64,000 nucleotides of DNA from Anaerolineae bacterium. Lineage in GTDB: Bacteria; Chloroflexota; Anaerolineae; Aggregatilineales; Phototrophicaceae. Shown piece after piece: positions 98 through 31,332 of the stretch. Made by a program: the position numbers and the translations under genes. Numbering within the stretch: the first letter of the stretch is position 1; each line of letters starts with the position of its first letter. The notes under the pieces were generated by a model. It searched no databases and had not been told where the DNA came from. It saw nothing but the letters and a program-made list of their open reading frames with translations. The DNA is taken from assembly GCA_022822305.1 (NCBI GenBank), contig JAJEBY010000016.1, positions 806,001-870,000 on the forward strand. Direction: 5' to 3'.

Positions 98-417
98 GAG
101 TCGAACTTATGGGCAGTATATCAGCGCCAATCTGTGCTGTCAATACACATGTCTACACGCATGGGCGGCGCTATTCGTGAGTGTCTGCCTCGGCAACTGT
201 ACTGGAAAAACTTCGGGGTGTATCGATAGAATTTCATCAGAAATGGCTAGTTCTACGCTGATTGACAGCCAAGCCTCGCTATACTATGCTAAGCCTGTTT
301 CAATGGAGATTCATGCAAGGGAATTTGATCAATCCGCTGACCGTTGAATCTCCAATTGCCCGAAATTGATTGGGGCAGACCAGGGAAGGTCAGAATATCG
401 ACAAAAGGGTGCGCAAT

Positions 418-723
418 ATGGAAGACACGATTGACAAGGAAGCCGGATTGTACGAGGCCTTGCGCAGCGTGATCGATCCGGAAATCGGCATGAATATCAT
501 CGAGTTAGGTTTGGTGCGCGGCGTCGACATTGAAGAAGAAAGCGCTCACGTCAACATGATCATGACGACGCCATTTTGCCCTTACGCGCCGCAGTTGTTG
601 GAGCAGACGCGCAGGACCACTCAGGACTTCCTGGGCGTGCCGACCACGATCGAGATGGGCATGGAGATGTGGGATCCGAGCATGATGGAAGAGGGCGCCG
701 CCAGCGACTGGGGTCTATTCTAG
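418..723 (+). CDS. DUF59/MIP18-family metal-sulfur cluster assembly protein
   Basis: MEDTIDKEAGLYEALRSVIDPEIGMNIIELGLVRGVDI...MTTPFCPYAPQLLEQTR; typical DUF59 motif (VxDPEIGxNIxELGLV) and conserved Cys. The ATG at 418 is preferred over the TTG at 370. Confidence 0.85.
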   Translation: MEDTIDKEAGLYEALRSVIDPEIGMNIIELGLVRGVDIEEESAHVNMIMTTPFCPYAPQLLEQTRRTTQDFLGVPTTIEMGMEMWDPSMMEEGAASDWGLF

Positions 724-808
724 CCGCGGTTGTTTCGCTCCCCCGATTGCGTCCCAAGCGCTAGCCAAGCATGAGCCGGGCGACAAGCTCCAATTCATAG
801 GGCAGGAA

Positions 809-2962
809 TTAGGGCCGATTGCGCTGGATCCACTGCAGCGGATCAATGTAGTGCGAGATAAGTTCATTGTAGTTGAGCTTGGGCCAGTTGCCTGGTCGCT
901 GCTCAAACATGGATGTGGGACTTAGGTCGAAGTGCAAATGAGGCACAAAGCGACCAAAGGCGTCGCTCACCTCGCATATGCGCTGACCTCGTGTTACCCG
1001 GTCCCCAACGCTGACGCGCATATTCTGCACGTGCGCGTATCGGCTGTAGATGATTTGCCCGGCCGGGATATACAAGGGATCGTGCCTGATCACAACCAAG
1101 TTACCCCAGACGCCTAATCTGGCAGCAAATGTGACGACGCCGCTGGCGACAGAATAAACGGCCATGCCCTTGTCCGCGAAGGGTCGACCGAAGTTCAAGT
1201 CGGCGCCGGTGTGATAGGCTTCGCTGGGTGTGCCGGTGAAGTACAACTTGGCGAAGGGAGTGGCATCACGCCAGCCGGGCGGCCAGACCTCTGAGCCGCG
1301 ACGTTGTTCGCTAGTGCCGACGGGCGAATCGTAGCCGTCCGCCACGTTGACGCCACCGATGACGCTGGGACGGCTTCCGTTTCCGCCGGGTGGCTGGCTC
1401 GGTTCATTTGCCGGACCCGCCGGCGAGTATCCGGGCGGCGTGGTGACGATGCGGCGAAAGCGCACGGCATCAAAAGCGATTTGCTTATCCGCCTCGCCGG
1501 TAACATCGTTGAGAAAAACGCGTCCGGCATTCTCCATCGTGCGATCGAGATCGAAAATGCCCAGCGATACCCAGGTATTGCGGTTGATGCTCTGGTTAAT
1601 GTCTAGCACGACTTCGGTGGTGGTGCCGACGATGCCGTGTACCTTGTAACGTGCGCGGGTTGAAGTTGCCTTTTGATTGGGAATGAAAGCGGCAATCTCG
1701 TATAGCCCCGACTGGGGCAAGTCTTTGCGCCACTCGGCCCAAACCTTGCTGGTGCGCAGTTCCGTATTCGTGTACAGATAGTCCCAGCCCCAGGTATTGG
1801 TACGCACGTTGAATTCCGGTTTGCCGGTATATGTTCCGCTCCGGAATCCCTCACCGGCAGGCTTAATCACCACCTCGTCGGTGAAATTCTCGATATTGCC
1901 AAGCGGCGCGTCCGCGGGAGAATCGGTCAGCTCGATACGCGTGTTGACGGCCGTCCATTGCGAGATGACGCCGTAGCGCCACCAACTGATGCCCTTGGCG
2001 CCATGTTTTTGAGTCGCCAGGGTATGCGCTTCGACCTGGTCCTGTACAACAGCGTCGCCCTGCAGCACGGGTATGATCGGCTTGCCATATCCTGCCCATA
2101 CATCATATGTAGACTGCAACGCCCCTTCGGGCGTGTTGCGGAAGGTACGCCAATAGGTCTGCGGGTGCACGCTATCGACAAAAGGACTCCACTGATCGGG
2201 GAAAATCGTGTGTTTGTGATAGGGGCGCGGATCGACGCTGATGCCAATGTGATAACGCGTTCCGAGACCTCTGCGCAACTTCAGCATGAAGGGCCGGACG
2301 GCGCTCTCTCCACCTTGCCAATAGTGGGCGTAGGGCTCGATATCGAGGATCAGCGATTGCACGCCCGGTCGACTGCAAGCTTCTATTATGATGGCGGTTT
2401 CGCCTTCGATATCGAGTCCATGAGGCACGCACCAGGCATGAAAATCCAGGCCGGCGTTTTGGCAGGCGGTCACCCATTGATCGATGCTGCTGGCGCCGGT
2501 TACCGCCATATCGGTGTTGTCAAAATCGCCCATCCAGCGGGCGCCGTCAGAAATCTTGACAAAGATCTGTTCGACGTTGCCAGCGCGGCTATTGATATTG
2601 GTCAGCAGCTGGGCCCTGGTATTCTCGGCGATGCCGCTGCCTTTCCAATGCCATAGCGCGACCTTGCCGTCGTAGGGTGTTGGTGGATGTGGCGATGGCG
2701 CCGCGCCGATCGCGGGGATGAACTCGATATACCCCGTGTATACCCAGCCGCGCACGCCGGCTTTTTCGATCCAGACCCAGTTGGTGGGTGTCTTGGTACT
2801 CGGATAATAGACCACCAGAGCGTTGTCCAGGAGGTCGCCGACGTCTTGATAACTAATGCCGGGACCGCGGCGGATGTTGCTGAATGCGGCGCTCGTGTTG
2901 GCTATGGCGACAACCGGACTGCCAGGCTGATCCGGCTTGGGTACGGAAGCGGAACTACTCAT
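809..2962 (-). CDS. Multidomain protein: SH3-like domain, glycosidase-like barrel, golvesin-C-like module, C-terminal M23 peptidase
   Basis: C-terminus has HTGADLNFGRP and HLHFDL (M23 metal/catalytic motifs); YEIAAFIPNQKATSTRARYKVHG...AFDAVRF resembles golvesin-C-like domains; N-terminal NIRRGPGISYQDVG...GWVYTGYIE is SH3-like. Confidence 0.75.
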   Translation of the reverse strand: MSSSASVPKPDQPGSPVVAIANTSAAFSNIRRGPGISYQDVGDLLDNALVVYYPSTKTPTNWVWIEKAGVRGWVYTGYIEFIPAIGAAPSPHPPTPYDGKVALWHWKGSGIAENTRAQLLTNINSRAGNVEQIFVKISDGARWMGDFDNTDMAVTGASSIDQWVTACQNAGLDFHAWCVPHGLDIEGETAIIIEACSRPGVQSLILDIEPYAHYWQGGESAVRPFMLKLRRGLGTRYHIGISVDPRPYHKHTIFPDQWSPFVDSVHPQTYWRTFRNTPEGALQSTYDVWAGYGKPIIPVLQGDAVVQDQVEAHTLATQKHGAKGISWWRYGVISQWTAVNTRIELTDSPADAPLGNIENFTDEVVIKPAGEGFRSGTYTGKPEFNVRTNTWGWDYLYTNTELRTSKVWAEWRKDLPQSGLYEIAAFIPNQKATSTRARYKVHGIVGTTTEVVLDINQSINRNTWVSLGIFDLDRTMENAGRVFLNDVTGEADKQIAFDAVRFRRIVTTPPGYSPAGPANEPSQPPGGNGSRPSVIGGVNVADGYDSPVGTSEQRRGSEVWPPGWRDATPFAKLYFTGTPSEAYHTGADLNFGRPFADKGMAVYSVASGVVTFAARLGVWGNLVVIRHDPLYIPAGQIIYSRYAHVQNMRVSVGDRVTRGQRICEVSDAFGRFVPHLHFDLSPTSMFEQRPGNWPKLNYNELISHYIDPLQWIQRNRP

Positions 2963-3244
2963 GAATTGCTCCTGCCAGCGTTGCTGCGGTTCAATGCTGC
3001 GAGCAGATGATTGACGCGGAACGCGCTGCGCATCCTACAACCTGCTCGCAAAGCCAGACTATCACGATTTTGCAAATGGGAGGCGCAAATTTAGACGCGA
3101 ACCTGGATGTGTGTATGGCGCCCGCGTACCATTGACGAGCCACGAACATTTGGCGCGACTTTTGGGTATCGCAATTTGTCTGGACGAAGCCGACTTTGCG
3201 TCTAAGCGCAGATTGAATCAGCGCGATCCACCGTTACCCGAGCG

Positions 3245-4348
3245 CTAAACTACAAAGTTTCCGTCCTTGTAGAAGAGCTCGCCGTCGACCCTGATCTCGG
3301 AGTCCACACGCATATCGCAGATCATATCCCAATGCACAGCGCTGACGTTCTGGCTGCCCGTTTCCGGATAACCCATGCCGATCGCCATATGCACGGTTCC
3401 GCCAATCTTCTCGTCATAGAGAATGCTGCCGGTAAATTTGTCGATGCCAAAGTTGGTACCGATGGCGAACTCCCCGATATAACGCGCGCCTTCGTCCGTG
3501 TTTAGCTGCGCATGCAGCAAGTCTTCGTTTTGTTCGGCGGAGGCGTCGACTACTTTGCCCGCTTCAAACTTGAGCTCGATTCCGCTGACGGCGCGACCGC
3601 TGACGATGGCGGGATAGGAAAAGCGCACCCAACCGTTGACGCTGTCTTCGACCGGGCCAGTGTAGATCTCGCCACTGGGCATGTTGCGGGTACCGTCGGC
3701 ATTCAGAAAATGTCGACCGACAACACTGAGCTCGAGATCTATGTGTGGACCGGAGAGCTTGATATTCTCTTTGCCCGCGAGGTAGTCCACTTTCTCTTGT
3801 TGCACGGCGCTGAGTTTACGCCACTCGGCAGCGGGATCCTCGCGATCACAGAAGCAGGCGCCATAGACGAAGTCTTCATACTCTTCGAAGCTCATTTTGG
3901 CTTCCTGGGCCGATGCCTGCGAGGGATATAGAGTGCCGACCCAGCGGAAATCATTGGTCGCGGAGCGCCGCAAGCGAGTCTGGAGAATGGGCGCCTGGGC
4001 GGCGCGATATTGCTGCAAACGCGCGGCATCAATAGATGTCATTGACCGCGTGTTGGTTTGCGCCGTGGCACGAATATAGACATCCGCCTCGTCGACGTAT
4101 CGCTGCATGAGCGGGTCTATCCAAGCAATCTGCTCGTCGCTGGCGTGGCGCAAGAGATAACGATGCATGTAGTCGTCGTCGACTAGCAGGCTCGGGTGCG
4201 CGCCGGCATCAATCACAGCCTCGTAAATGTCGCGCAGAATTGGCAAGGCGTCGACGTTGCCGAGAATGCCCACCCACTCGCCCGGCTGCACGTTTGTGGA
4301 ATAGCCGACTAGCAGCCCGGCGAGACGTTTGCGTCTGATATCACTCAT
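3245..4348 (-). CDS. Aminopeptidase, M29-like family
   Basis: 367 aa; ...NADGTRNMPSGEIYTGPVEDSVNG... and ...IGTNFGIDKFTGSILYDEKIGGTVHMAIGMGYPETGSQNVSAVHWDMICDMR resemble M29 aminopeptidases. Confidence 0.85.
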   Translation of the reverse strand: MSDIRRKRLAGLLVGYSTNVQPGEWVGILGNVDALPILRDIYEAVIDAGAHPSLLVDDDYMHRYLLRHASDEQIAWIDPLMQRYVDEADVYIRATAQTNTRSMTSIDAARLQQYRAAQAPILQTRLRRSATNDFRWVGTLYPSQASAQEAKMSFEEYEDFVYGACFCDREDPAAEWRKLSAVQQEKVDYLAGKENIKLSGPHIDLELSVVGRHFLNADGTRNMPSGEIYTGPVEDSVNGWVRFSYPAIVSGRAVSGIELKFEAGKVVDASAEQNEDLLHAQLNTDEGARYIGEFAIGTNFGIDKFTGSILYDEKIGGTVHMAIGMGYPETGSQNVSAVHWDMICDMRVDSEIRVDGELFYKDGNFVV

Positions 4349-23751: not shown

Positions 23752-26700
23752 CTATGTCGCTCGCCTAACCCCGACACTAATCGTTTCGCCGCGGATATCG
23801 ATGTCGTTGCTCACGAAATCGTCAGTGATTATGTCGAAGCGCAGATCGTCCGCGAGAGTTTCCCGGCTGATATAGCCGCCGAACAATTGCATCACGGCGT
23901 CAACGGCGTCTGACGCATCGCAATATACAATCTCGATCCGGTCATCCAGATTGAAATCGGCGACTTTGCGCAGGTTTTGAATCCGGCGCACGAGTTCACG
24001 AGCCAGCCCCTCTTCTAGCAAATCGGATGACAGGCTGGTATCCAGTACGACCATATAGCCGCCGTCTTCAATCGCGCCGGCGGGAGTCTCGACCGAGACC
24101 TTGACTTCGCATTCTTCGTTGAGGATCTCAAAGGCCTTGCCATTCAATTCGAGCGCAATATTTTCGCCCGCCAGCAGCTGCTCGGCAAATGGGCGAACGA
24201 AGTCTTGTTCGCCATCGCGCAACGCCGCTTGAATGGCTTTGAAATCTCTCCCGAATTTGCGGCCCAGGAATCGCGGCAGCGGATTCAATGCGTAAACCGT
24301 GGTGGCCGAGAGCTTGTCCGCTTCGTCCGCGCCCATGACATCCAATGACTTCAGGTTGAGCTCGGACAAGATTAAGGGCTTGTACCGCTCGAGAATCGCT
24401 GATTCCGCGATATCCCGGAGCGCAAACTGAGCGCCGGCCAAGGGCTGCCGGACACCGATCTGCGCAGCATTGCGGGCCGCCAAACCAAGCCTGACCAATC
24501 GCTGCACCAGCGCCATTTCTTCGGTCAGCGCGTCATCCAGGAGCGCAGCATCGCAAGCCGGCCATGACGACAGGTGAACGCTCTCGGCGTTAGCGCTGTC
24601 TTGTTCGGCGACTAGATTGCGATAGATTTCTTCGCTCAAGAAGGGCATGGCCGGCGCGAGCAACTGCGCGAGGGTCGTCAGCACTTCATAGAGCGTCGCG
24701 TAGGCAGCCTGTTTGCTGTCATCAATGTCGCTTTTCCAGAAGCGCTCGCGGCTCAACCGCACGTACCAATTGCTAAGGCGCTCGACAAAGTCCTCGATCG
24801 GTCGCGTGGCGTTGGTCGCATCGTAGTTCTCGTAGGCCTCGGTGACCGTTCCGACTAGTTTGTGCAGTTCCGCCAAGAGCCAGCGATCCAGCAACTCCCG
24901 TTCCTCGGGCGGAGGCGCCGTTTGCGCCGGCGACCAGTCATCGATGTTGGCGTAGGTGACGAAGAAGCTGTAGGTATTCCACAACGTCGACCAGAACTTC
25001 TTGATAACGTCATTGACCAAGTCTTGCGAAAAGCGCCGCGGCTCACCCGGCGGGCCCGATGTATACGCCTGCCAGCGAAAGGCGTCGGCGCCGGAAAGTT
25101 CCAGGACATCCCAGGGATCGATCACGTTGCCTTTGCTGGTCGACATTTTCTGGCCGTTTTCGTCCAACATATGCCCAAGAGAGATCACATTCTTGAAGGC
25201 GACAGTCTCAAACAACATGGCCGCGATGGCGTGCAAGCTGTAAAACCAGCCGCGCGTCTGGTCGACGGCTTCGCAAATGTAATCGGCAGGATGCTGCTCC
25301 TCCAGCAAATCTCGGTTTTTCTGCGGAAAAGCCCATTGCGCTACTTGCATGGCGCCGCTATCGAACCAGACATCGATCACCTCTGGCACGCGCCGCATGA
25401 CGCCGCCCTTGCCGCTGGGGTTTTCGAATGTGACGTCATCCACATAGGGCCGGTGCAAATCCAACTCGCTCAAGTCGTCGCCCGCAAGTTCGCTAAGCTC
25501 GTCGATGCTGCCGACGCAGATCATGTCTCCAGTGTCTTCGTCAACCCAGACCGGCAGCGGCGTCCCCCAATAGCGTTCCCGACCCAAAGACCACTCTTTC
25601 AGGTCTTCGAGCCAGTTGCCGAAGCGCCCGTCTTTCAGATGATCCGGCACCCAGTTGATGGTCTGATTCAGATCGATCATCTGCTGCTTGTACTCGAGGG
25701 TGTTGATGAACCAGGTCTCGCGCGCAAAATACATCAGCGGCGCATCGTCGCGCCAGTTATGCGGATACGAGTGTTCGTAGCGCTCGTGACGATACATCAG
25801 GCCGCGCTCGGTCAAATCGCTGATGATCTCGTCGTCAGCATCTTTGAACCACAAGCCGCGAAAGTTCGTGCAGGCGTCGACAAAGCAGCCGCTCTCGTCC
25901 ACGGTGATCAGCACGGGCAGGTCATGTTTTCGCCCAGTCTCGAGATCATCGACGCCATAGGCGGGCGCCGTGTGCACAATACCGGTGCCGTCCGCCGTGC
26001 TGACGTAATCCGCCGGCACCACATAGGCGTAGTCTTGCTCGACCGGCAAAAAGGCATAAAGCGGGAGGTAGCGCCATCCCAGCAAATCCGCGCCTTTCAG
26101 CCGCGCAACGATCTTGTAATCAATATCCTGGTTCAGCACCTCATCCATCAGGTCCGCCGCCAGAATCAGCTGTTCTACGCCTTCGCCGTCAGCCGTTGGA
26201 CCTTCGACTTGCACGTAGTCCACGTCTTCGCCGACGGCCAGCGCCGCATTGGCTGGCAGCGTCCAAGGCGTTGTCGTCCACGCCAGCAGATAGACGCCCG
26301 GTTTGTCTTTCACGGGAAAGCGCACATACACGCTGGGATCGACAATGGTTTTGTATCCCAGCGACACCTCGTGGCTGCTGAGCGGCGTTCCCGATGTCGG
26401 GCTGTAGGGAACCACTTTGTAGCCGCGGTAGAGCAGCCCTTTGTCCCAAAATTGTTTCAGGATCCACCAGACGCTTTCGATGTACTCATTGGAAAAAGTG
26501 ACGTAAGCATCATCGAGGTTCACCCAGAAGGCGATGCGATCGGTGAACTTCTCCCATTCGGTGATGTGACGAAACACGGTCGAACGGCACTTCTCGTTGA
26601 ATTCGGCGACGCCGTAGGCTTCGATCTGACTCTTGTCGTCGAATCCAAGTTCCTTTTCGACTGCGATTTCAACAGGCAACCCATGCGTATCCCATCCGCC

Positions 26701-26955
26701 CCGGCGCAGGCAATAATAGCCATTCATCACCTTGTAGCGCGGGAACATATCTTTGAAGGCGCGGGCAAGCACATGATGGCTGGCTGGCTTGCCATTGGCC
26801 GTAGGCGGACCTTCATAAAACACGTAGCGCGGGGCATCTTCACGGCCCTCGGTCGTGCGTTCAAATATGCGATTGAAGCGCCAGAAATCGAGCTGCCTCA
26901 TTTCCAGCCGATTGATGACGTCGCTATTGACTTTCGAATTCACTGCTCTAAACAT
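23752..26955 (-). CDS. ileS: Isoleucyl-tRNA synthetase with altered HxGH signature
   Basis: 1067 aa; FYEGPPTANGKPASHHVLARAFKDMFPRYKVM, GGWDTHGLPVEIAVEKELG, DVWFDSGAMQVAQWAFP, QKMSTSKGNVIDPWD. Confidence 0.95.
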   Translation of the reverse strand: MFRAVNSKVNSDVINRLEMRQLDFWRFNRIFERTTEGREDAPRYVFYEGPPTANGKPASHHVLARAFKDMFPRYKVMNGYYCLRRGGWDTHGLPVEIAVEKELGFDDKSQIEAYGVAEFNEKCRSTVFRHITEWEKFTDRIAFWVNLDDAYVTFSNEYIESVWWILKQFWDKGLLYRGYKVVPYSPTSGTPLSSHEVSLGYKTIVDPSVYVRFPVKDKPGVYLLAWTTTPWTLPANAALAVGEDVDYVQVEGPTADGEGVEQLILAADLMDEVLNQDIDYKIVARLKGADLLGWRYLPLYAFLPVEQDYAYVVPADYVSTADGTGIVHTAPAYGVDDLETGRKHDLPVLITVDESGCFVDACTNFRGLWFKDADDEIISDLTERGLMYRHERYEHSYPHNWRDDAPLMYFARETWFINTLEYKQQMIDLNQTINWVPDHLKDGRFGNWLEDLKEWSLGRERYWGTPLPVWVDEDTGDMICVGSIDELSELAGDDLSELDLHRPYVDDVTFENPSGKGGVMRRVPEVIDVWFDSGAMQVAQWAFPQKNRDLLEEQHPADYICEAVDQTRGWFYSLHAIAAMLFETVAFKNVISLGHMLDENGQKMSTSKGNVIDPWDVLELSGADAFRWQAYTSGPPGEPRRFSQDLVNDVIKKFWSTLWNTYSFFVTYANIDDWSPAQTAPPPEERELLDRWLLAELHKLVGTVTEAYENYDATNATRPIEDFVERLSNWYVRLSRERFWKSDIDDSKQAAYATLYEVLTTLAQLLAPAMPFLSEEIYRNLVAEQDSANAESVHLSSWPACDAALLDDALTEEMALVQRLVRLGLAARNAAQIGVRQPLAGAQFALRDIAESAILERYKPLILSELNLKSLDVMGADEADKLSATTVYALNPLPRFLGRKFGRDFKAIQAALRDGEQDFVRPFAEQLLAGENIALELNGKAFEILNEECEVKVSVETPAGAIEDGGYMVVLDTSLSSDLLEEGLARELVRRIQNLRKVADFNLDDRIEIVYCDASDAVDAVMQLFGGYISRETLADDLRFDIITDDFVSNDIDIRGETISVGVRRAT

Positions 26956-27192: not shown

Positions 27193-27999
27193 CTAAGCGC
27201 TTGGGACTCGCGGCTGCATCCGCACTACAAGCTCGCCGAGTTTCCTGCCGTAGGGCGTCCCGGCGTATTTCGCCGCTTCGTCTTGCCAGAGTGACAAATG
27301 GCGCGCAAGTTCCGGCGCTGGAGGAGGATCGCACAGTCCCGCCATAGATTGGCAAATCTTGGCCAGCGCGACTTTCTCAGGTTCATCGGATTGTCCCGCG
27401 CAGAATCGGGAAAAGTGCTCCATTGCCAAACCCGGCTCGCCATTCATGAATCGTGCCAGCCCGATGTCGAAATGCGCTAGCGCCGGCGCGCCGCTTGCCA
27501 GCGCTTGCTCCAATTCGTCTGCTGCCGCGCCGAACCTCCCAGCCACGAGATACAGCTTGCCGGCGGCGTAGAGCGCGTAGTGATAATCAGGTTTCAGTTG
27601 CAGCGCGCGCTGCAGCGTCCGCTGACTCAGCTCGAGCTCGCCCAGATGTCGATACGTATTGCCGAGCAGCACAAGCGCGTCGACGGATGCCCGGCCGGAT
27701 TCGGGGATTTGCTCCAGGATTCTGCGAGCGGAAACATAGTCCGCTGCTACAAAATGCCGCTGCGCCTGATGGTAGGGCGAGATCGCCCGGCGATTGCCCC
27801 AGAAGAAGATCAGCTGCACAGTCAGCAGCAAGCCAAAGGCGCCAAAACGGGCGGGCAGCAGAAGATCCCTAGGGCCATCAATTCCCAGCCAGAACAACAG
27901 CAGCAGCAAGGTTATGGCGATTCCCAAGGAGAGTTTGGAAGCTGGATCCCAGGCGTGGAATCGCTGACGCCAATCGCGAAAGAAGTAGCGAAAAATCAT
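27193..27999 (-). CDS. Membrane-anchored TPR protein
   Basis: N-terminal hydrophobic helices, then TPR units (VLLGNTYRHLGELELSQRTLQRALQLKPDYHYALYAAGKLYLVAGRF). Confidence 0.75.
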   Translation of the reverse strand: MIFRYFFRDWRQRFHAWDPASKLSLGIAITLLLLLFWLGIDGPRDLLLPARFGAFGLLLTVQLIFFWGNRRAISPYHQAQRHFVAADYVSARRILEQIPESGRASVDALVLLGNTYRHLGELELSQRTLQRALQLKPDYHYALYAAGKLYLVAGRFGAAADELEQALASGAPALAHFDIGLARFMNGEPGLAMEHFSRFCAGQSDEPEKVALAKICQSMAGLCDPPPAPELARHLSLWQDEAAKYAGTPYGRKLGELVVRMQPRVPSA

Positions 28000-28883
28000 T
28001 TCTGAAGTTGCGTCTTCATTTCGCTTTCGGCGATGGCTTGCTCGATTTGCTCGATTTCATAGTTCAGCAGGCTGCCGTAAGCGGTACCCTCCAGTGCCCT
28101 GAGGGTCGATTTCCAGGCATCCAGTCCGTGACTGGTGGTGATCATGCGCTCGGTAGCGGCGGCCGCCTGCTCTCGCTCGCCAGTCTTTGAAAAGTGCCGC
28201 GACAGATAATAGTTCACGCGCACGCTGTACATGGATGGCATGGAGTAAAGCGCCGCGTGTTTGAAGGATTCGATAGCCGAAGCATGTTCACCCGCCAGCT
28301 GCTGTACAAATCCGAGTTCCGCCCAAATGATTGGCTGGTCCGGCGAGATTTGAGCGGCGGTTTGCAAGGCGATGGCCGCTTCGCCGTAGCTCGCCTGCAT
28401 TCGATAGCCATTGGCCAAGGTCATATAAGCGCCGGCGTTGCCTGGGAACATCTGCACCGCGCGATCGGCCGTTTCTTGGGCTTTCGCCAACTGGCCGTTG
28501 TAGGCGTAGGCGCTGGTCAACAGCATGAGCAAATCCGGCGTGATCTTGCCGCCAGCCAGCACACGCTCCATCAATTGGATCGCTTGAGGAAATTGCAGCT
28601 TTTGCATCAACCGATAGGCTTCTCCATAGCCGGCGCCATATTGACGCGATTGGCGAGCCAACAAGATGCCGACCAGGAGGAAACCCAGCAGGATCATTGA
28701 TGCCGAAAGGCATAAGCCTGCCAGCGACAGTTGCGCGACTGGCGACAAATAGGGATCAAGCGGCTGGGTCATCCCGTCCGCGAATTCGATGACCACGCCC
28801 AGAACAAAAACGACCAAACCCAGCGCGGCCAAACCCACCGAAATGAATACCGCGATCCAGGCGATCAAGCGGCGCAGCGACAT
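27996..28883 (-). CDS. Membrane-anchored TPR protein
   Basis: Two N-terminal TM segments; LLTSAYAYNGQLAKAQETADRAVQMFPGNAGAYMTLANGYRMQASYGEAAIALQTAAQISPDQP. Overlaps neighbours by 1-4 nt. Confidence 0.75.
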   Translation of the reverse strand: MSLRRLIAWIAVFISVGLAALGLVVFVLGVVIEFADGMTQPLDPYLSPVAQLSLAGLCLSASMILLGFLLVGILLARQSRQYGAGYGEAYRLMQKLQFPQAIQLMERVLAGGKITPDLLMLLTSAYAYNGQLAKAQETADRAVQMFPGNAGAYMTLANGYRMQASYGEAAIALQTAAQISPDQPIIWAELGFVQQLAGEHASAIESFKHAALYSMPSMYSVRVNYYLSRHFSKTGEREQAAAATERMITTSHGLDAWKSTLRALEGTAYGSLLNYEIEQIEQAIAESEMKTQLQK

Positions 28884-29884
28884 CAGAGCGCCTCCGCCAT
28901 CAATGCGGAAAGCTGTTTCTCGCCGCCTAACAAGGCGCGGGCGAGTTCGATATCATCTTGCAGCACTTCACGCAGGGCCGCCGCCTCGTCCGCGCGCATG
29001 ATCACCTGCCACTCTTCCAGTCCAGCTTTCTCCCGCTTGATGGCCTCAAGCGCTTCCTGCGCTTTGATCTCGTCACCCAGTCTCGCGTTGGCGCGGAGCA
29101 GATACAACTGCACCAGCAATCGGTGACGAGAATCTGGTATCTTCGACTCCAAGGCAGACTGCAGGTGCCGCACCGCGTTTGCGCTGTCTCCCAGGCGATC
29201 TTCAATCATGCCAAGGTTGTAGGCGGCCACCCACTCGTCCGGAGCCAATTCGTAAGCCTTTTGCGCCGCCTCAAGCGCTTGCTCAAAGTTGCGGGCCTGC
29301 AACTCGACTTCCGCCAATCCATTATATGCCACTGCCTGTTGATCGTCCAATTCGATCATGCGGCGGTAATCGCGCCGGGCCAAATGCAAGTTGCCGGCCA
29401 GGCGATGCAGCTCGGCGCGAAAGCGATAATGCTCGGCAAGGTCCGGCTGTTGCTTGATCTGGGCATTCATCTCGCTGATGGCGTTTGCATGATCTCCCTT
29501 GCGCATGGCTTTGATCGCGCGTCGGTAGTGCCTGGACGCGCCGCCACTATTGAAGACAAAGATGCCGGCTACGATCCAGCCGATGCCGGCGCCGACGAAC
29601 AATCCAGTCAAATGCGGAAACACTAGCGATGCGATGAATATTGCAAGGACGGCGGGCACAATTATCGCCAGCCAACGCAATCGTTCTTCGCGCGGCAATC
29701 GCCCAAGAATCAGGTACGCCGCGCCGACAATGAAGACAAGCAGCAAGATCGTCTGCGCGGTGGTTGCCCAAGCCTGATCCGCGATGAAGCCCAATGCCAA
29801 ACTGGCCAGACCCGTGATTCCCAACAAAGCCAAGAATGCCTTGAAGCGTCGAGGACCCAAGAATATCTGAAAGCGCCCGATCAT
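28883..29884 (-). CDS. Membrane-anchored TPR protein
   Basis: Several N-terminal TM segments followed by TPR units (AVAYNGLAEVELQARNFEQALEAAQKAYELAPDEWVAAYNLGMIEDRLGD). Confidence 0.78.
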   Translation of the reverse strand: MIGRFQIFLGPRRFKAFLALLGITGLASLALGFIADQAWATTAQTILLLVFIVGAAYLILGRLPREERLRWLAIIVPAVLAIFIASLVFPHLTGLFVGAGIGWIVAGIFVFNSGGASRHYRRAIKAMRKGDHANAISEMNAQIKQQPDLAEHYRFRAELHRLAGNLHLARRDYRRMIELDDQQAVAYNGLAEVELQARNFEQALEAAQKAYELAPDEWVAAYNLGMIEDRLGDSANAVRHLQSALESKIPDSRHRLLVQLYLLRANARLGDEIKAQEALEAIKREKAGLEEWQVIMRADEAAALREVLQDDIELARALLGGEKQLSALMAEAL

Positions 29885-29923: not shown

Positions 29924-30628
29924 TTAGTTACGATGCGCATAATCTCTGATTGACACAATAAATTCATCTCGTTTATACGAATTGACGCGTTTGACCACAA
30001 TGTTGTTTTGGTCCACCCAATAAGACACGGCTTTATCGTGATAGCGATAGCGTCTGGCCCTCAGCGCCTTCCCGCCTAATGAGATACACTCTTCGCCCAA
30101 GGATTCTACCGGCGATATGATCTCGCGCGTTACCCCGGGGAACAGCTGCGCGTGCTCGAACATGGGCACAAAGACCTTAACCGGCGATTCAAAATACCTT
30201 GCCAGCGCCCCGAGAACGCTCCCGCGCAAGGCCAATAGGGGGATGTCGACCAAGCCGTCCGTGGCGAATTCGCGCTCAAGATATCGACGATCCCCGCCAT
30301 TCATCGCGTATCCGACTTGCAGCGTGTCCTCTTCAATCTGATACGTGGCGGCAAGCGTCTTGATTCCGCCGGGGGAATCGCGACTCTCATAGCGGATGTC
30401 AATTCGCATCAACTGATCGTCGGCGCCCAGCAGCGCCTCGGCCAATATCGACTTGCCTTCTTCCGCCCAGGCGTCCAGATCGATACGGACAAACCGGCTC
30501 TGGTCGCCAAGTTCGTGGATGGTCCACGATTCACGCTTTTGCAGCGTTTCGCCATTCTTGAGAAAACTGTAGCGGCCGCTGGCCAGGAATCTTTCGTGCG
30601 CTTGCACGACATGCAAGTAGCGCATCAA
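29924..30628 (-). CDS. Hypothetical protein
   Basis: 234 aa; 4-nt overlap with the upstream alaX-like gene supports translation. Confidence 0.6.
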   Translation of the reverse strand: MMRYLHVVQAHERFLASGRYSFLKNGETLQKRESWTIHELGDQSRFVRIDLDAWAEEGKSILAEALLGADDQLMRIDIRYESRDSPGGIKTLAATYQIEEDTLQVGYAMNGGDRRYLEREFATDGLVDIPLLALRGSVLGALARYFESPVKVFVPMFEHAQLFPGVTREIISPVESLGEECISLGGKALRARRYRYHDKAVSYWVDQNNIVVKRVNSYKRDEFIVSIRDYAHRN

Positions 30629-31332
30629 TCACCGATTTCCACATATAGACGTTTGTTGATCCCGCCCTTGCTCTTGTATTTGCTGATGCGGATTGAGCCC
30701 ACCTCGCGTGTATTGGCCACGTGAGTGCCACCATCGGCCTGTAAATCCAAGCCAACAATTTCGACAGTGCGCACTTCGGTGATGCCTTCGGGCAAGAGGT
30801 TTATCTTGGTCCGAATGAGATCGGGGATTTGAAATGCCACGTCGCGCGGCACGATCGCTATCTTGACATCACGAGCGGCGTCGACTTCCTGATTGATTTT
30901 CTTTTCGATCTCAACGACCACTTCCGGCGCCAACCTCTCGAACTCGAAATCCATGCGACCCGAAAGAATATCCATGTTGCCGCCGGTCACGCTGGCCTGA
31001 TAGTCCCGCCAAATGACGCCGCAAAGCACATGCATCGCGGTGTGCGTTCGCATGATCTTGTAACGCCGCTCCCAGTCAATTTCCCCGGCAACACGACTGC
31101 CAAGCGCCGGCAAGTCGCCGTCAATGATATGCCAGTCGCCGCGCGCGACTTTCTTGATTTGATACGCATTGCCGTCCGAGCGGAGTATGCCGGTATCGCA
31201 CAGCTGGCCGCCACCACCGGGATAGAAGGCCGTGCAATCCAACTGAATGCCGTTCTTTTCGTGATCGAGCGCAGTCACCTCCGCAGTGAATTCTCGCAGA
31301 TAACTATCCCGCAGATACAGCTTAGCCGTCAT
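30625..31332 (-). CDS. alaX: Alanyl-tRNA editing protein (AlaX family)
   Basis: TAFYPGGGGQLCDTGIL, MRTHTAMHVLCGVI (HxxxH), GLDLQADGGTHVANTREVGSI. Confidence 0.9.
   Translation of the reverse strand: MTAKLYLRDSYLREFTAEVTALDHEKNGIQLDCTAFYPGGGGQLCDTGILRSDGNAYQIKKVARGDWHIIDGDLPALGSRVAGEIDWERRYKIMRTHTAMHVLCGVIWRDYQASVTGGNMDILSGRMDFEFERLAPEVVVEIEKKINQEVDAARDVKIAIVPRDVAFQIPDLIRTKINLLPEGITEVRTVEIVGLDLQADGGTHVANTREVGSIRISKYKSKGGINKRLYVEIGD

What the first reader, a model, noticed from the sequence alone, without database searches (positions are those of the whole stretch)
26773..26784. IleRS with A-S-H-H replacing the class I HxGH signature
Residues 58-61 of ileS read A-S-H-H (codons GCC AGC CAT CAT) in PPTANGKP-ASHH-VLARAFKD, where class I synthetases have HxGH (e.g. 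PPTANGLPHVGH). The flanking sequence is intact, so this is not a frameshift. From memory, some bacterial IleRS2 enzymes carry a swapped GxHH motif linked to mupirocin hyper-resistance. This looks like a related AxHH version with Ala in the first position. KMSTS replaces KMSKS. This could be intrinsic pseudomonic-acid resistance and an unusual catalytic solution.
Basis: partly seen in the sequence, partly recalled or inferred. Interest (0 to 1): 0.78.

Follow-up and report, generated by a model that had tools for sequence, protein, structure and literature searches.

The report
Isoleucyl-tRNA synthetase with altered catalytic motifs
This is the only isoleucine-charging enzyme found in a Chloroflexota bacterium; its first signature motif (A-S-H-H) is a known natural variant linked to strong resistance to the antibiotic mupirocin, but here the second signature motif has also lost a key lysine, which is rare and not described in the papers searched.

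Summary
In detail: ileS (26955..23752, minus strand, 1067 aa) reads ASHH at residues 58-61 and KMSTS at 603-607. It is not a sequencing error: six other genomes of the genus carry both, and dN/dS is about 0.05. It is the only IleRS found in its genome.

AXHH is part of the described "G/AXHH" motif of type 2 IleRS. Deinococcus radiodurans IleRS2 is naturally ALHH, with a mupirocin Ki of 6.6 mM (PMC10485003). Ser or Thr at position X is not in that paper's list of residues, but is common in the relatives examined here.

What is less ordinary is the second change. KMSTS replaces the second lysine of KMSKS, the residue whose backbone faces mupirocin's carboxylate in solved structures. Within the genus all 7 ASHH genes are KMSTS; all 26 others checked are GSHH with KMSKS. 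KMSTS also turned up in three other IleRS2 lineages, one with Ala at position 1, so a general Ala-Thr coupling is not shown.

Best reading: a functional, housekeeping, probably mupirocin-hyper-resistant IleRS2 whose two class I signature motifs are both altered. Kinetics and Ki are untested.

The parts
23752..26955 (-). ileS, type 2 isoleucyl-tRNA synthetase, 1067 aa, the only IleRS found in the genome
   Evidence: NCBIfam TIGR00392 929.8 bits (cut-off 621.4), Pfam tRNA-synt_1 + Anticodon_1 + DUF5915; best solved relatives are IleRS2 (1ile, 8c8u-8c9d); one copy
26773..26784 (-). [quoted passage not shown] His60 is the third-position His expected to replace the first His of HXGH
   Evidence: in the AlphaFold model it lies at the start of helix 59-77
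25135..25149 (-). KMSTS (residues 603-607), second class I signature motif with the second Lys replaced by Thr (Thr606, 25138-25140)
   Evidence: aligns with Lys593 of P. megaterium IleRS2
26533..26580 (-). Residues 126-141: three of the eight changes fixed in the ASHH clade (N126T, L137F, T141I), in or just after the model helix 116-140, which corresponds to helix alpha-2
   Evidence: alignment to PmIleRS2 with offset 4
26248..26277 (-). Editing-domain Thr-rich segment TTTPWTLPAN (residues 227-236), intact
   Evidence: Thr227-229 and Asn236 invariant in 31 IleRS2
25945..25974 (-). Editing-domain segment HTAPAYGVDD (residues 328-337), intact
   Evidence: His328 and Asp337 invariant in 31 IleRS2

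Best explanation
This is the housekeeping type 2 IleRS of a Chloroflexota bacterium. In its G/AXHH-type motif the third-position His60 takes over the transition-state role of the missing first His, Ala58 fills the small position, and His60 blocks mupirocin, so the enzyme should be mupirocin hyper-resistant. On the branch leading to this clade an ancestral GSHH/KMSKS enzyme became ASHH/KMSTS. The second KMSKS lysine, which in class I enzymes helps hold the ATP phosphates, is gone. Activity is presumably kept by the first lysine (Lys603), the neighbouring Lys608 and/or a bound K+ ion, as reported for human TyrRS (KMSSS). Shown: sequence, sole IleRS copy, purifying selection, IleRS2 membership, intact editing site, linkage of the two changes within the genus. 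Inferred: catalytic activity, hyper-resistance, the compensation.
For: Sequence. Sole IleRS in this genome; one IleRS in each ASHH relative. dN/dS 0.04-0.07 within the ASHH clade. IleRS2 by NCBIfam, PDB sequence search and fold; the top Foldseek hits are PmIleRS2 wild type and mutants, including its hyper-resistant HIGH-motif mutant; model pLDDT 89.5. The published G/AXHH mechanism and the measured ALHH enzyme, Ki 6.6 mM, kcat 45.5/s. All 7 ASHH genes are KMSTS and all 26 other genus IleRS are GSHH/KMSKS. 2 of 8 clade-fixed substitutions fall in the 9 motif residues, hypergeometric P = 0.0017. Thr606 aligns with PmIleRS2 Lys593, whose backbone NH lies near mupirocin's carboxylate. Precedent for losing the second lysine: human TyrRS KMSSS, with K+ replacing it (Austin and First 2002, known here by title only), and human TrpRS KMSAS.
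Against: No activity or Ki is known for any ASHH/KMSTS enzyme. Outside the genus KMSTS also occurs with GSHH (G475, G563) and GVHH (G316), and ASHH occurs with KMSKS (Conexibacter), so the two changes are not obligately coupled. No mupirocin-type antibiotic is shown in the habitat, so selection by antibiotic is speculation. The model has no ligand and its coordinates were not inspected.
Confidence: 0.85

Rival explanations
1. The two changes are an adaptive pair: K606T is itself a second resistance step. Removing the second lysine from the loop that faces mupirocin's carboxylate weakens binding further, and Ala58 plus the alpha-2 changes compensate catalysis.
For: Complete linkage within the genus; an independent ASHH+KMSTS pair in a Solirubrobacterales MAG (L073); clade-fixed changes also at residues 126, 137 and 141 in or beside alpha-2, towards which the HXGH tip shifts when mupirocin binds.
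Against: Only four independent origins of Thr, two with Ala; the independent-pairs test has no power. The mupirocin contact is through the backbone NH, which Thr also has. The parent GSHH state should already be hyper-resistant.
Confidence: 0.2
2. KMSTS is near-neutral drift: in IleRS2 with the HH motif the second lysine is less critical and is occasionally lost.
For: Four separate origins, all on XXHH backgrounds, with GS, GV and AS first halves.
Against: Thr is otherwise very rare: 2 of 400 Chloroflexota genomes and three IleRS genes in 151 Solirubrobacterales genomes. The residue is Lys in 85 of 91 aligned outgroup IleRS. Strong purifying selection on the gene.
Confidence: 0.35
3. A degenerate or moonlighting IleRS paralogue, with the real enzyme elsewhere.
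For: Two catalytic motifs altered at once.
Against: No other IleRS in this genome or in the six ASHH relatives; dN/dS about 0.05; editing residues intact.
Confidence: 0.03
4. Sequencing or assembly error at the motif.
For: None found.
Against: Seven genomes with different synonymous codons.
Confidence: 0.005

Closest known systems
Deinococcus radiodurans IleRS2 (ALHH), PMC10485003
   Same: Type 2 IleRS with Ala at position 1 and His at position 3 of the signature motif; natural, active, mupirocin Ki 6.6 mM
   Different: X is Leu there and Ser here; its KMSKS sequence was not checked here, so the second change could not be compared
G/AXHH IleRS2 group (86 of 379 sequences in PMC10485003; S. griseus IleRS2)
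   Different: The paper lists X as Ile/Val/Leu/Met/Tyr; here Ser, and Ser/Thr/Ala are common in the Chloroflexota and Solirubrobacterales examined
Human cytosolic TyrRS (KMSSS) and TrpRS (KMSAS)
   Same: Class I synthetases that naturally lack the second KMSKS lysine; K+ is reported to substitute in TyrRS (Austin and First 2002)
   Different: Different enzymes, not IleRS2 with a swapped signature motif
AgnB2, self-immunity LeuRS of Agrobacterium radiobacter K84 (KQSKS), PMC5059758
   Same: An antibiotic-resistant class I synthetase with an altered KMSKS loop
   Different: It alters the Met and keeps both lysines; TM84, not mupirocin; a second copy for self-protection
MupA / MupB
   Same: Mupirocin-resistant type 2 IleRS; this protein scores 831 and 818 bits
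   Different: Far below their cut-off of 1900 bits; those are acquired resistance genes, this is the chromosomal housekeeping gene

Membership tests
Type 2 isoleucyl-tRNA synthetase (IleRS2) | IleRS by curated profile | tested here: met
   TIGR00392 929.8 bits vs cut-off 621.4
Type 2 isoleucyl-tRNA synthetase (IleRS2) | Closer to IleRS2 than to IleRS1 in sequence and fold, including the C-terminal domain | tested here: met
   T. thermophilus and P. megaterium IleRS2 at about 900-930 bits, IleRS1 at 382 bits or less; Foldseek ranks PmIleRS2 full length first
G/AXHH mupirocin-hyper-resistant IleRS2 | Gly/Ala at position 1, His at positions 3 and 4 of the motif | tested here: met
   ASHH; published definition
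G/AXHH mupirocin-hyper-resistant IleRS2 | X among Ile/Val/Leu/Met/Tyr, as listed in the paper | tested here: not met
   Ser59. The list describes that paper's sample and is not a tested requirement; GSHH/GTHH/ATHH are widespread
G/AXHH mupirocin-hyper-resistant IleRS2 | mM-range mupirocin Ki with retained activation activity | not testable with these tools
   needs enzyme kinetics
Class I aminoacyl-tRNA synthetase | Intact KMSKS | tested here: not met
   KMSTS; second Lys replaced by Thr. Other true class I enzymes also lack it, so this does not exclude membership
MupA/MupB acquired resistance IleRS | Score above curated cut-off | tested here: not met
   831 and 818 bits vs 1900

The most novel reading that the evidence does not exclude
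A functional sole IleRS in which both class I signature motifs have lost a principal catalytic residue at the same time (first His moved to position 3, second Lys replaced by Thr), changed together as one active-site remodelling that also involves helix alpha-2, with a cation or a neighbouring lysine replacing the second Lys.
Probability: 0.3. Interest if true: 0.55.

Novelty: new variant of a known kind. Interest (0 to 1): 0.33.

Why it matters
The headline (AXHH) is published. What remains is a natural test case of how far the class I active site can be altered: a set of close relatives (about 80% identical) that differ in both signature motifs, GSHH/KMSKS against ASHH/KMSTS. They would allow the roles of the first His and the second Lys in IleRS2, and the contribution of the KMSKS loop to mupirocin binding, to be separated with few substitutions.

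Tried and rejected
Sequencing error: rejected (seven genomes). Second ileS: none found. General coupling of Ala at position 1 with Thr in KMSTS: looked strong after the first loci, then weakened when KMSTS was found with GSHH (G475, G563) and GVHH (G316), and ASHH with KMSKS in Conexibacter; the independent-pairs test has too few pairs to decide. A T-box leader or other RNA upstream of ileS: no Rfam match at E up to 1. Antibiotic biosynthesis next to ileS: the neighbours examined are a PucR-type regulator, TPR proteins, an AlaX-like editing protein and housekeeping genes. A literature search for KMSTS returned no paper. Organism name: not given by the tools; relatives in L074, L082, L094, L095 and L099 are titled Chloroflexi or Chloroflexota bacterium and L092 Anaerolineae bacterium; isolate prefixes such as RHO and COS suggest sponge metagenomes (inference, cf. 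PMC8163846).

Full report
Observation. The gene at 26955..23752 on the minus strand encodes a 1067-residue IleRS. Residues 58-61 are A-S-H-H at 26784..26773 (codons GCC AGC CAT CAT) and residues 603-607 are K-M-S-T-S at 25149..25135. The frame is open. NCBIfam gives ileS at 929.8 bits (cut-off 621.4) and Pfam the synthetase core, anticodon and DUF5915 domains. In the whole genome (3.67 Mb, 94.3% complete) the only other matches are 27-30% identical pieces of a ValRS-like gene.

It is type 2 IleRS. The best solved relatives by sequence are T. thermophilus IleRS (931 bits) and P. megaterium IleRS2 (900-913 bits), with IleRS1 at 382 bits or less. An AlphaFold model (31-sequence alignment, mean pLDDT 89.5, pTM 0.77) matches PmIleRS2 first, including the hyper-resistant motif mutant 8c8w. 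In the model the motif lies at the start of helix 59-77 and KMSTS in the loop after strand 587-592. The residues Thr227-229, Asn236, His328 and Asp337, which correspond to known editing-site positions (own knowledge of E. coli IleRS), are invariant in 31 homologues.

What is already known. Brkic et al. 2023 (PMC10485003) reported that some IleRS2 carry G/AXHH in place of HXGH, with Gly or rarely Ala first, and that this causes up to 1000-fold higher mupirocin Ki. Their D. radiodurans enzyme is naturally ALHH, with Ki 6.6 mM and normal activity. In IleRS2 the motif is shifted so that the third His reaches the position of the first, and it clashes with mupirocin. The paper lists X as Ile, Val, Leu, Met or Tyr; Ser and Thr are common here. 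Of 139 Solirubrobacterales genomes with an XXHH motif most read GSHH, and GSHH, GTHH and ATHH are frequent in Chloroflexota.

How the motif is distributed. A scan of 84,980 species genomes for PPTANGxP-A-[S/T-like]-HH found 38 stretches: Dormibacterota-type Chloroflexi with ATHH, a cluster of Chloroflexi with ASHH, a few Solirubrobacterales and one Parcubacteria MAG. On a 104-row tree built without the motif columns, Ala at position 1 needs four changes, so the Gly-to-Ala change recurs.

The second motif. Within the window's genus (34 genomes, 33 with the gene detected) the 7 ASHH genes are exactly the 7 with KMSTS; the other 26 are GSHH with KMSKS. The clade has 99% SH-aLRT support. Eight substitutions are fixed in it against at least 90% of the other genus sequences: G58A, N126T, L137F, T141I, V362C, C592S, K606T, D737E. 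Two fall in the nine motif residues (hypergeometric P = 0.0017), and three lie in or just after helix 116-140, the counterpart of helix alpha-2, towards which the HXGH tip shifts when mupirocin binds to PmIleRS2. Thr606 aligns with PmIleRS2 Lys593, the second KMSKS lysine; the equivalent Lys597 of IleRS1 donates a backbone hydrogen bond to mupirocin's carboxylate. In LeuRS the second lysine contacts the adenylate-analogue phosphate.

KMSTS is rare but not unique. The pattern matched 2 of 400 Chloroflexota genomes (this one and G316, a GVHH enzyme) and 4 of 151 Solirubrobacterales genomes, of which three are IleRS (G460 ASHH, G475 and G563 GSHH) and one is on a contig without the IleRS motif. 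A wider sample of 347 genomes of the same phylum as G460 added none. Thr at this position needs four changes on the tree; two coincide with Ala. This does not establish coupling. All cases found are on XXHH backgrounds, but the number of canonical IleRS sampled is too small to conclude from that. No paper in the library contains KMSTS; human TyrRS (KMSSS) and TrpRS (KMSAS) are precedents for losing this lysine, and K+ is reported to replace it in TyrRS (title of Austin and First 2002, cited in PMC7927068).

Function. dN/dS is 0.04-0.07 between ASHH-clade genes and 0.05 between the window and L004 (the latter with near-saturated synonymous sites). With no second IleRS in any of the seven genomes, the enzyme must charge tRNA-Ile. 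I conclude that it is an active housekeeping IleRS2, probably mupirocin hyper-resistant through His60 (inference from the published group), with an additional, unexplained change in the second signature motif. Whether that change is adaptive or neutral is open.

Verdict. The double-motif form is a new variant of a known kind and of moderate interest.

Noticed in passing
L064-L100 and L125-L144 (Dormibacterota-type Chloroflexi IleRS2): Most of these ATHH (or GTHH) enzymes have lost the Met of KMSKS: KASKS, KQSKS or KSSKS, with both lysines kept. The M-to-Q form matches the AgnB2 self-immunity LeuRS (KQSKS, PMC5059758).
   Followed up: partly
L121 (ORF 191-3592 +) and L122; genomes G047 and G041, same order as the window: A divergent IleRS (35% identical, TIGR00392 694 bits) with GLHH, PITANNPM instead of PPTANGxP, and PMHKS instead of KMSKS (first lysine lost); no other IleRS was found in those genomes.
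   Followed up: partly
L063 and L137 (Dormibacterota-type contig DMCH01000047.1): The IleRS reading frame carrying the ATHH motif appears broken in this contig (the frame with the motif ends after 324 residues); possibly a frameshift in the assembly.
   Followed up: no
window 30625-31332 (-): AlaX-like alanyl-tRNA editing protein (tRNA_SAD domain) a few kb upstream of ileS, so two translation-fidelity genes lie near each other.
   Followed up: partly
window 27193-29884 (-): Three consecutive TPR proteins with hydrophobic N-terminal parts directly upstream of ileS, function unknown.
   Followed up: partly
G020 (same genus): Genome reported 90% complete in which no IleRS was found, only a ValRS-like match; most likely a gap in the assembly.
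   Followed up: no
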